Shown in pieces: positions 40,850 through 44,556 of a stretch of DNA of 64,000 nt. A model generated the notes under the pieces. The model saw only the letters and a program-made list of their open reading frames with translations. It was not told where the DNA came from and made no database searches. Origin of the DNA: a virus; the IMG/VR virus record IMGVR_UViG_3300025093_000009, positions 52,158 to 116,157 of that record; one strand, 5' to 3'. Made by a program: the position numbers and the translations under genes. How positions within the stretch are numbered: the first letter of the stretch is position 1; each line of letters begins with the position of its first letter.

Positions 40850-42031
40850 ATGAAAAGATATTTAATTCTGTTGGTTCTTTTCCTGTCATCATATGCTGTA
40901 AATGCCCAAGGTTTCTTTGACTCTCTTTACAAAGATTTCTTAAAATTTGGGACTGTATATGGTGCTGGTGATATTAGTAACTCAATAGAAGCATCTGAGC
41001 CAACTTATTTTGTTAGAACCAATCCCAATGGTAGTATATATGATATACCCGTTGTAGAAGATAATACACCTCAATACCCATTTGATTATAGATTAGGCTT
41101 TGGTATACGTAAACTAGCTAGGTTTAATTATGAAAGAAAACCTAGAAACTTTTATGATGGTACTGAGACACAACTTGCTTTTACAGCACCAACTTCAGCA
41201 TTTCAAGGATTAGAATATCAACTACACTATGAGAAAGAAAGGTGGAGAGGGGAGCACTTTGATAATAATAGATACTTTGTAAAACACACAGGTAAGTATC
41301 ATATAGTTAAAGCTGAGTCAAGAGAAGTAGGTAAGATCAACTTAAAGTATCAATCAGCAGAAGCAAGACTAAGGTTGCCTATAGGTAAGAAGTTTAGTAT
41401 ATCTGGCGGTGCAATCTACCGTACTCATGACCGTGCTTATGGATATAATCCAATTGAGATCTGGTTAAATGAAACTGATGAGGATGGGTTTGCAGTAAAC
41501 CCTTGGTACACTTTAGGTTTTATATATGGGTATGATGATATATTCTATACTGAAGAAGATGAAAATGGTAATGAAGTAAATGATTGGTATTGGATAGATC
41601 CAGATGGAAACAGAGTTGCAGATACAGATTTAGAATTTAGAGAAACAATCTTTAGAGATTTAATGAATAGATATAATAGAGAAGCATGGTCAACTCTAGA
41701 TAGATTTGGTGAGATTGCTCCTATAGTAGGATTTGATTATTATCATTATAAAAACAATTTCTGGTTGCATGCCTATGCTAACTGGATTCTTCCTTATCAT
41801 AAGTATATACAGGGGGATGAGCAGTGTTCTTATTTAAATAGAAACAATTGGGGTAAAGGAGGTTTAATTGAAGACTCACAATTTGAACAGTGGTCTGATT
41901 ATTCTTTTGGTGCAAACTTGGGATGGAAGGTAGGAAAACACCTTGGTGTGTTTATAGAGGGAGAATATGCAAAGATGTGGGATAGTGAACTATTCAATAC
42001 ATCTTTTGGACTTAATTATACATTTAGATAA
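40850..42031 (+). CDS. Phage-encoded outer-membrane beta-barrel-like protein
   Basis: The 393-aa protein starts with a clear signal peptide (MKRYLILLVLFLSSYAVNAQ, likely cut after NAQ). The mature part alternates aromatic and polar residues in amphipathic strands (AFTAPTSAFQGLEYQLHY, FSISGGAIYRTHDRAYGY, FWLHAYANWILPYH, YSFGANLGWKVGKHLGVFIE). It ends in a barrel-type last strand (TSFGLNYTFR). This is the architecture of small Bacteroidota outer-membrane proteins. It is the first gene after the virion cargo block, with a 95-bp gap, so it may have its own promoter. Its job could be surface change, receptor masking or help in lysis. I cannot name a specific family. Confidence 0.7.
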   Translation: MKRYLILLVLFLSSYAVNAQGFFDSLYKDFLKFGTVYGAGDISNSIEASEPTYFVRTNPNGSIYDIPVVEDNTPQYPFDYRLGFGIRKLARFNYERKPRNFYDGTETQLAFTAPTSAFQGLEYQLHYEKERWRGEHFDNNRYFVKHTGKYHIVKAESREVGKINLKYQSAEARLRLPIGKKFSISGGAIYRTHDRAYGYNPIEIWLNETDEDGFAVNPWYTLGFIYGYDDIFYTEEDENGNEVNDWYWIDPDGNRVADTDLEFRETIFRDLMNRYNREAWSTLDRFGEIAPIVGFDYYHYKNNFWLHAYANWILPYHKYIQGDEQCSYLNRNNWGKGGLIEDSQFEQWSDYSFGANLGWKVGKHLGVFIEGEYAKMWDSELFNTSFGLNYTFR

Positions 42032-42731: not shown

Positions 42732-43133
42732 ATGAAAACATTCCTACTCACACTGATAACTCTACTAGTAACAACGGCTTTACATGGTCAATCTTGGGTT
42801 ACAGATGAGACAATAAATGATGCAATTTCTAGTCATTCTGGTTTTGATGATCATGATGAAATTGTAATTATAGAGTTCTATGCAGAATTCAATAAAGATA
42901 ACGCATTTAAAGACAGAGAAAAACTATCCGGTGTAACATATTATATGTGTGATGTAGCACAGGCACCACAATCTAAAAAACAATATAAAATAAGAATGGC
43001 ACCAACCATTCTTGTATTTTTAGACGGGTCTGTTGTATTGCAATACAAAGCAGGACTAGACTTACAGTGTCCAGTTACTTTAGCTGAGCTAGAAAAAAGC
43101 ATTGCTGAGGTACAAAAAGAATCTCAATTCTAA
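42732..43133 (+). CDS. Exported thioredoxin-fold protein lacking the CxxC site
   Basis: The 133-aa protein has a signal peptide (MKTFLLTLITLLVTTALHGQ). It then shows the thioredoxin pattern IVIIEFYAEF (residues 44-53) and, later, YKIRMAPTILVFLDGS with the conserved cis-proline P91. Where thioredoxin has W-C-G-P-C, this protein has F-N-K-D-N: both redox cysteines are replaced by N54 and N57. Only C73 and C108 remain. It therefore cannot be a classical disulphide exchanger and may be a periplasmic binding or chaperone-like protein. It lies in the envelope operon 2 bases after the preceding gene. Confidence 0.65.
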   Translation: MKTFLLTLITLLVTTALHGQSWVTDETINDAISSHSGFDDHDEIVIIEFYAEFNKDNAFKDREKLSGVTYYMCDVAQAPQSKKQYKIRMAPTILVFLDGSVVLQYKAGLDLQCPVTLAELEKSIAEVQKESQF

Positions 43134-43149
43134 AAACAATCAATAATAA

Positions 43150-43776
43150 ATGCAAAACATACTTTTCACCCTGGCATTCCTGCTTCCGGTATGCCTCTCC
43201 TCTTCACAAATATCAACTTGTGATGTAGAACTTCTCAACCTTGATTGGGATGCAAAACAAATAACCTTAACTCTTAATGATAATAATTGTATAAGTACTC
43301 CTGACTGGGTGCCTACAAATGATTCAGTTTATGCAATACAAATGTTCTTTTCATTTGATGGTTATAACTGTAGTATAGCATCTAACAACAATAATTTTTT
43401 ACCAAACCTTGGTCTAAATGATACCACCACCTATTCTATATCAGAGTGGGCTGATGCATTTAATTGTTTTGACTCAGCATTTGAACACTATATTGAAACG
43501 TGTGAAGCTGTAGTTGGTGTAACTGGTGCAAATAATACAATCAACATAGACGCAAATGGCAGTAATAACTACATAGGTTATAATCCTATATGGGATAACT
43601 GCTATGAAACTGTGTCTGTAGTTGAGGTAAATAAGAAAACCCTGCATACCATATATGATAGACAGGGTAATCTTATACTAGAAACTTATGATATTCCTTG
43701 GTCAGAGATGCAAGGTTTATACTTGATCAAGCAAGATAATATCATTTCTAAACACTTTGTTTCTGAAAGAAATTAA
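43150..43776 (+). CDS. Secreted Cys-containing protein with T9SS-type C-terminal sorting domain
   Basis: The 208-aa protein has a signal peptide (MQNILFTLAFLLPVCLSSSQ), a body with several cysteines (C24, C47, C73, C106, C118, C151), and an Asn/Gly segment (ANNTINIDANGSNNYIG). The last 50 residues read VVEVNKKTLHTIYDRQGNLI, then SEMQGLYLIKQDN and KHFVSE. They follow the type A sorting domain of the type 9 secretion system (beta strand, D-x-x-G, then GxYxI, then K-x-F-V). Proteins with this tail cross the outer membrane of Bacteroidota. It would be presented on or released from the cell surface during infection. The stop overlaps the 3' end of the minus-strand lipoprotein gene by 4 bases. Confidence 0.6.
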   Translation: MQNILFTLAFLLPVCLSSSQISTCDVELLNLDWDAKQITLTLNDNNCISTPDWVPTNDSVYAIQMFFSFDGYNCSIASNNNNFLPNLGLNDTTTYSISEWADAFNCFDSAFEHYIETCEAVVGVTGANNTINIDANGSNNYIGYNPIWDNCYETVSVVEVNKKTLHTIYDRQGNLILETYDIPWSEMQGLYLIKQDNIISKHFVSERN

Positions 43777-43976
43777 TTCCCCTCTGGATTTTTATTTCTT
43801 GAAGCTACAAGCTCCTGATAGTGGTCCTTGGAAATAGTAGTTCTTGTTACAATTACTACTTTGTCTTCATAAATGACAGCTTCCCTTGTTGTTTTGGGTG
43901 TCTCTGATATCAACTCTTGTGTAGGACCACAAGACGCAAAAGTTAATAACATCACCATTATTACTAGATTCTTCAT
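43773..43976 (-). CDS. Small lipoprotein (possible o-spanin)
   Basis: The 67-aa protein has a short hydrophobic leader ending in a lipobox (MVMLLTFASC, Cys at 16). A short polar domain rich in Thr, Val and charged residues follows (SETPKTTREAVIYEDKVVIV). Small lipoproteins of this size occur as outer-membrane spanin subunits in phages, but no partner is proven. It converges with the T9SS-tailed gene. It is separated by 54 bases from the zinc-ribbon gene upstream and could be its last operon member. Confidence 0.5.
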   Translation of the reverse strand: MKNLVIMVMLLTFASCGPTQELISETPKTTREAVIYEDKVVIVTRTTISKDHYQELVASRNKNPEGN

Positions 43977-44030: not shown

Positions 44031-44369
44031 CTAACTTGTGAAGAAATGAATTGTCCAAGCTATTAGTCCATTTAACTGTAATGCAACAAGATTCCATTGT
44101 CTTCTAGTGCTTACTTGTATTAGTACAAGGATAAATCCTACCATAAAAAATATAGGTTCAACAGACCATTGACCAGCAATAAGAAAACCTGTCCCCATAT
44201 ATCCAGCACGACTTGCTAGTCTTTCTACAGGTGTTAGTCTTCTATCACGAACCATCATTCTAAGAACGTCACGCCACCAGTTGTATTCACATTTACGGCA
44301 TGTCTTTTTACTTGCAGTCTTAAAAAACCAATCAGGTCTTTTTTTCTGACAAACGTTACAGGTCTTCAT
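44031..44369 (-). CDS. Zinc-ribbon membrane protein
   Basis: I chose the Met at 44369, 14 bases inside the end of the upstream lipoprotein gene, giving 112 aa. The longer frame would add an unlikely N terminus overlapping that gene. The protein begins MKTCNVCQKKRPDWFFKTAS, followed by CRKCEY: two CxxC pairs that would bind zinc. Two hydrophobic segments follow (GYMGTGFLIAGQWSVEPIF and FFMVGFILVLIQV), plus a final hydrophobic stretch. The function is unknown. It is coupled to the lipoprotein and the ribonucleotide reductase genes upstream. Confidence 0.5.
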   Translation of the reverse strand: MKTCNVCQKKRPDWFFKTASKKTCRKCEYNWWRDVLRMMVRDRRLTPVERLASRAGYMGTGFLIAGQWSVEPIFFMVGFILVLIQVSTRRQWNLVALQLNGLIAWTIHFFTS

Positions 44370-44556
44370 CTGCATAATAAATTGAGTCTTTGTATCTCCA
44401 TCTTTCTCTTTCATCATTAATAGAATCTTGAATAGTATATATATGCATACTATCATCAATTATCTCCCAATGTAAAACATTAGGATCATTATCCGGGTGA
44501 TACTTAGCTTTACAACCTAGGCAAAGCAAAAGTAAAAATAAAAATTTAACCTTCAC
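44356..44556 (-). CDS. Small lipoprotein-like protein
   Basis: The 66-aa protein has a leader MKVKFLFLLLLCLGC with a weak lipobox, the Cys being at residue 15. The mature part is short and very polar (HPDNDPNVLHWEIIDDSM, NDERERWRYKDSIYYADEDL). The start overlaps the end of nrdA by 11 bases and the end overlaps the zinc-ribbon gene, so the three are probably translated in sequence. An envelope or spanin-like role is possible; no family was recognised. Confidence 0.45.
   Translation of the reverse strand: MKVKFLFLLLLCLGCKAKYHPDNDPNVLHWEIIDDSMHIYTIQDSINDERERWRYKDSIYYADEDL

What the first reader, a model, noticed from the sequence alone, without database searches (positions are those of the whole stretch)
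43150..43776. Phage protein carrying a type 9 secretion sorting tail
The last about 50 residues follow the Bacteroidota T9SS type A sorting domain (LHTIYDRQGNL, QGLYLIK, KHFVSE) and there is a signal peptide in front. This would mean the phage uses the host's own T9SS to place a small Cys-containing protein on or outside the cell, a route I do not know as described for phages. Possible jobs are superinfection exclusion or surface change.
Basis: partly seen in the sequence, partly recalled or inferred. Interest (0 to 1): 0.75.

Follow-up and report, generated by a model that had tools for sequence, protein, structure and literature searches.

The report
Phage cargo for host secretion system
A phage of marine flavobacteria carries a small exported protein whose tail is a divergent copy of the tag that its hosts use to send proteins through their own type 9 secretion machine; such phage cargo has been reported before, but this protein family is new and standard searches miss it.

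Summary
ORF 43150-43776 (208 aa) has a Bacteroidota-type signal peptide (invariant Gln20), a six-cysteine domain, and a C-terminal tail homologous to the T9SS type A sorting domain. Curated models (TIGR04183, PF18962) do not detect the tail, which explains why annotation would miss it. Profile-profile comparison with 28 bona fide sorting domains does detect it: it beats 200/200 column shuffles and the C-termini of 55 other phage families. A blind search of 395 bacterial genomes with the phage tail profile returns almost only T9SS sorting domains at protein C-termini; the reversed profile returns noise. Only the last four strands of the seven-strand sandwich are predicted with confidence, and the PNP motif is degenerate. 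Relatives (8 contigs) occur only in uncultured viruses, in T4/Immutovirus-like myoviruses, while the window phage is crAss/Cellulophaga-phage-like, so the gene moved between lineages. It sits in a hypervariable slot beside conserved exported proteins. Export through the host T9SS is likely (about 0.75); superinfection exclusion is only a guess.

The parts
43150..43776 (+). 208-aa exported phage protein with divergent T9SS type A sorting tail
   Evidence: ORF; 8 viral relatives at 50-66% identity; dN/dS well below 1
43150..43206 (+). Sec signal peptide, residues 1-19, with Q-rule Gln20 next
   Evidence: sequence by eye; Q20 invariant in 9 sequences; Q-rule PMC5837995
43207..43569 (+). cargo domain, residues 20-140, five of the six invariant cysteines; fold unknown
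   Evidence: low-confidence model
43570..43773 (+). divergent T9SS type A C-terminal sorting domain, residues 141-208
43582..43593 (+). NPIW (residues 145-148), aligned with the YPNP motif of type A CTDs; weak
43639..43761 (+). four confidently predicted strands, residues 164-204, second half of the sandwich
43714..43731 (+). GLYLIK, motif D equivalent (Gly189 invariant)
   Evidence: motif role from PMC10202324
43750..43758 (+). KHF, motif E equivalent (Lys201 invariant)
   Evidence: motif role from PMC10202324
42732..43133 (+). upstream exported thioredoxin-like protein without CxxC, conserved in the phage clade; 16 bases before the gene
40850..42031 (+). conserved exported protein resembling an outer-membrane beta-barrel (ends YTFR), same gene block
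   Evidence: (143 candidate stretches confirmed)

Best explanation
The gene encodes a small accessory T9SS cargo protein. During infection it is made in the host, crosses the inner membrane by Sec (signal peptide cut before Gln20), folds in the periplasm with disulfides among six invariant cysteines, and is recognised through its C-terminal sorting domain by the host's own T9SS (SprA translocon, PorV shuttle), which puts it on the cell surface or in the medium. Shown here: exported-type protein, homology of the tail to type A sorting domains, purifying selection, mobility between phage lineages. Inferred: that the tail works, that the host has a T9SS, and that the cargo changes the surface of the infected cell, for example by masking or altering a receptor.
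For: Tail homology by profile-profile comparison with shuffle, reversed and decoy-family controls. Blind search of 395 genomes of the class of a marine Flavobacteriales genome with the tail profile: matches in 40 genomes, best E 6.8e-6; of the 30 loci read, 23 overlap a type A CTD by an independent CTD profile (i-E < 0.01), 4 more look like the type B/gliding C-terminal domain, 1 is unrelated; reversed profile: 4 genomes, best E 0.0019, no CTD. A bridging bacterial family (L249, L251, L254, L255) matches both the phage tail and TIGR04183, L254 over the cut-off. Last four strands modelled at pLDDT 83-89; RgpB CTD (7pq4, rmsd 2.3) and the T9SS substrate chains 8glk_D and 8gl8_D are in the weak fold-match list. 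Invariant Gly189 and Lys201 sit in motifs D and E; the last 22 residues with D and E suffice for secretion of a GFP fusion in HBP35 (PMC10202324). Nearest isolated phages infect Cellulophaga and Flavobacterium.
Against: No member passes TIGR04183, PF18962 or NF033708. The first half of the sandwich is not predicted with confidence and no fold match reaches E 0.001. The host is unknown, so presence of a T9SS is inferred. No secretion data. The tail evolves faster than the cargo domain, as expected for a tolerant signal but also for a relaxed one.
Confidence: 0.75

Rival explanations
1. The tail is a decoy: it binds PorV or the SprA translocon and slows or jams T9SS, lowering display of host surface adhesins that other phages use, rather than delivering a working cargo.
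For: Small, probably disulfide-locked cargo with a CTD-like end. Surface adhesins of flavobacteria depend on T9SS (PMC10202324).
Against: The cargo domain is under stronger purifying selection than the tail, which points to a job for the cargo. No jammer of T9SS is known to me.
Confidence: 0.08
2. The protein is exported by Sec only and acts in the periplasm or outer membrane, for instance in lysis; the tail is a leftover CTD or Ig-like domain without sorting function.
For: The gene block also holds holin-like, lipoprotein and other exported proteins. TIGR04183 and PF18962 cut-offs are not reached.
Against: Motif D and E residues stay invariant in nine sequences of two phage lineages. The tail keeps the extreme C-terminal position and length of sorting domains.
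Confidence: 0.12
3. It is a virion component (decoration or adhesin) whose resemblance to a CTD is a shared Ig-like fold.
For: In the myovirus contigs the gene lies a few genes upstream of baseplate genes; Ig-like folds are common in virions.
Against: Conserved signal peptide with Q-rule Gln. The blind search finds sorting domains, not virion proteins.
Confidence: 0.04
4. Chance resemblance picked by eye.
For: Curated models are silent.
Against: Shuffle, decoy and reversed-profile controls.
Confidence: 0.01

Closest known systems
T9SS type A C-terminal sorting domain (TIGR04183 / PF18962, Por_Secre_tail)
   Same: C-terminal position, about 68-70 aa, hxIYDxxGxxh ... GxYhI ... K end, last four strands, signal peptide in front; found by profile comparison and blind search
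   Different: Below all curated cut-offs; PNP motif degenerate (YNP followed by DNCY); first three strands not confidently predicted
Phage-encoded T9SS cargo of Cryophage (PMC7468147) and of BACON-domain gut phages (PMC6949934)
   Same: Phage genes with T9SS sorting domains, proposed to use the host machine; variable between phages
   Different: Those were recognised by annotation and include enzymes (endoglucanase, GH39, PA14) and BACON proteins; this is a small cysteine-rich family without recognisable domain, with a tail that annotation misses
Small secreted CTD proteins of 635-642 kb phages LR745206 and LR756502
   Same: About 190-200 aa, signal peptide, C-terminal sorting domain
   Different: Full TIGR04183 matches (39 and 46 bits); unrelated cargo part
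Q-rule exported proteins of Porphyromonas gingivalis phages (PMC10367356)
   Same: Phage proteins of unknown function with Bacteroidetes Q-rule signal peptides
   Different: No T9SS tail mentioned in that paper's text

Membership tests
T9SS type A cargo (TIGR04183/PF18962) | Score above the curated cut-off of TIGR04183 or PF18962 | tested here: not met
   No match for any of nine members; no match in six-frame search of the phage and relatives; so it is not filed as a curated member, only as a divergent homologue
T9SS type A cargo (TIGR04183/PF18962) | Detectable homology to type A CTDs in the right register | tested here: met
   blind search with reversed control 112; bridging family
T9SS type A cargo (TIGR04183/PF18962) | N-terminal Sec signal peptide | tested here: met
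   By inspection of nine aligned sequences, invariant Gln20; no predictor run
T9SS type A cargo (TIGR04183/PF18962) | Domain at the extreme C-terminus | tested here: met
   Residues 141-208 of 208; a few extra residues after motif E are tolerated in known cargoes (PMC11285876)
T9SS type A cargo (TIGR04183/PF18962) | Motifs D and E (Gly-x-Tyr region, terminal Lys) | tested here: met
   Gly189 and Lys201 invariant
T9SS type A cargo (TIGR04183/PF18962) | PNP-type N-terminal motif | tested here: inconclusive
   Invariant Asn145-Pro146 aligns with it but at low confidence
T9SS type A cargo (TIGR04183/PF18962) | Seven-strand 3+4 Ig-like sandwich | tested here: inconclusive
   Four C-terminal strands at pLDDT 83-89, first half below 50; RgpB CTD only a weak fold match
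T9SS type A cargo (TIGR04183/PF18962) | T9SS-dependent secretion | not testable with these tools
   Needs an experiment; host not known
T9SS type C sorting signal (NF033708) | Score above curated cut-off | tested here: not met

The most novel reading that the evidence does not exclude
A dedicated family of phage cargo proteins, traded between crAss-like and T4-like phages of marine flavobacteria, that the host T9SS displays on the infected cell to exclude competing phages, carried by a sorting tail too divergent for current models; many phage T9SS cargoes may have been missed for the same reason.
Probability: 0.2. Interest if true: 0.75.

Novelty: new member of a known kind. Interest (0 to 1): 0.5.

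Why it matters
If the tail works, phages of one of the commonest marine bacterial groups can place their own proteins on the host surface through a rotary-motor-coupled secretion system that only Bacteroidota-type hosts have. It gives a small, clonable test case (70-residue tail, F. johnsoniae as a laboratory host) for phage use of T9SS, and it shows that curated sorting models miss divergent phage cargo.

Tried and rejected
Single-sequence searches of NCBIfam, Pfam, PHROGs, PDB sequences, INPHARED and PLSDB: only chance-level hits such as PhoQ_Sensor and PRK00118. Full-length family in 84,980 GTDB species genomes: none. Further viral scans with other members as queries found no new relatives. 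AlphaFold of the full protein is poor (mean pLDDT 45) and its fold matches are not usable. The idea that the tail is only the second half of a CTD was replaced by a full-length but degenerate CTD after the blind search alignments. The idea that the tail belongs to the PNP-less 'LLGRE...FYIYDDGTVEKK' tails of marine Flavobacteriales was tested and not supported (phage tail versus these: at shuffle level). Lipoprotein: Cys15 is not in a lipobox and is not conserved. CARDB-like Ig domain for the N part: thought of from the strand pattern, not confirmed by Pfam.

Full report
What is there. The window is bases 52158-116157 of a 116,157-base uncultured virus record. ORF 43150-43776 (+, 208 aa) starts 16 bases after an exported thioredoxin-like gene and ends against a convergent small gene. 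Its parts are a Sec signal peptide (residues 1-19) followed by Gln20, a domain with conserved cysteines, and a tail. Gln20 is invariant in all nine family members, the signature of the Bacteroidetes Q-rule (PMC5837995).

The tail. Curated models do not see it: TIGR04183, PF18962 and NF033708 are silent for the protein, its relatives and the six-frame genome. The same searches find real sorting domains in two huge phages at 39-51 bits, so the method works. I collected 28 bona fide type A domains from TIGR04183 matches and compared profiles. The phage tail aligns in register (IYDxxGxLI ... GxYxIK) with score 23.8 and P 1.1e-4. None of 200 column shuffles exceeds 18.7, and among 56 phage protein families it ranks first, with the next at 13.1.

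Blind test. The full-length family profile was run over 395 genomes of the class of a marine Flavobacteriales genome. Five weak hits came back; four hit on the tail region, of which three are C-terminal tails of secreted proteins (two are full type A domains) and one is an out-of-frame hit over a CTD-like stretch. With the tail alone (A6) 40 genomes gave matches. Of the 30 loci read, 23 overlap a type A domain by an independent profile, four look by eye like the type B/gliding domain, two end in short tails with weaker support and one is unrelated. The reversed profile gave four genomes, best E 0.0019, none a sorting domain. A bacterial family of about 270 aa bridges the two: it matches the phage tail and TIGR04183, one member over the cut-off. 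The alignments extend the homology N-ward, so that phage NNYIxYNPIWDNC meets the YPNP motif; this half is weak.

Structure. AlphaFold models only the last four strands well (pLDDT 83-89), not the first three. Fold search of the tail gives no significant hit; the NMR structure of the RgpB CTD (7pq4, rmsd 2.3) and two T9SS substrate chains are in the weak list. The seven-strand sandwich is therefore not shown.

Family and spread. Eight other IMG/VR contigs carry the gene at 50-66% identity. No member is in 84,980 species genomes, INPHARED or PLSDB. These contigs have T4-like baseplate genes and a phosphohydrolase 46% identical to that of the Flavobacterium myovirus immuto, and the gene sits at one fixed place among them. 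The window phage is of another lineage, with a structural protein distantly related to those of crAss-like csAssE-Sib, Cellulophaga phi17:2 and Flavobacterium Fpv1. In 72 relatives of the window phage the slot after the thioredoxin-like gene holds ever different genes; in L004 that gene overlaps nrdA, an empty slot. None of the 42 relatives searched whole, nor the loci of the others, has the gene. So this is a mobile accessory gene. dN/dS is 0.11-0.14 in the cargo domain and 0.16-0.5 in the tail.

How it probably works. Sec export, oxidative folding, recognition of the sorting domain by the host T9SS, release at the surface. Motifs D and E, the part that suffices for secretion of a GFP fusion in HBP35 and whose lysines are needed (PMC10202324), are the best-kept part here (Gly189, Lys201). 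What the cargo does is not known. Surface change or superinfection exclusion fits an accessory gene next to conserved outer-membrane-like and exported proteins, but this is inference.

What is known. Phage-encoded T9SS cargo was described for Cryophage, with superinfection exclusion suggested (PMC7468147), and T9SS sorting domains were noted in BACON-domain gut phages (PMC6949934). P. gingivalis phages have Q-rule exported proteins (PMC10367356). The finding is a new family of a known kind, interesting because the tail is invisible to standard models and because the gene is shared by two unrelated phage groups.

Noticed in passing
L147-L226 (bacterial), L135-L146 (viral): A short tail without PNP motif (K-L--ITDLLGRETK...LLFYIYDDGTVEKKIIIE) ends dozens of different signal-peptide proteins in uncultured marine Flavobacteriales, several per genome, and 600-870 aa exported proteins in 12 phage contigs. 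The four phage proteins tested match neither TIGR04183 nor PF18962, and its profile match to type A CTDs is only at shuffle level. Five of six such genomes checked have SprA. It looks like an undescribed class of sorting tail.
   Followed up: partly
window 42732-43133: Exported thioredoxin-fold protein found in 72 related loci; none has CxxC in the active-site region, and nearly all have a Q-rule signal peptide. A conserved redox-dead phage thioredoxin-like protein of unknown role.
   Followed up: partly
window 40850-42031: Exported 393-aa protein, conserved in over 140 viral stretches, ending YTFR/YTFK like an outer-membrane beta-barrel; no Pfam or PHROGs match.
   Followed up: partly
L007:7739-8167: In a relative the same variable slot holds a 142-aa protein that looks like a small outer-membrane beta-barrel, so the slot may be a place for envelope-directed accessory genes.
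   Followed up: no
L111:1147-1707, L112:1105-1704: Two 635-642 kb uncultured phages (LR756502, LR745206) encode small signal-peptide proteins with full TIGR04183 sorting domains.
   Followed up: partly
L136:511-3117: An 868-aa exported phage protein with a MAM domain (PF00629, E 4.7e-21), a cysteine-rich part and the PNP-less short tail.
   Followed up: no
window 43773-43976 and 44356-44556: Two small lipoprotein-like ORFs on the minus strand next to the gene, one with a weak Rz-like spanin match.
   Followed up: no
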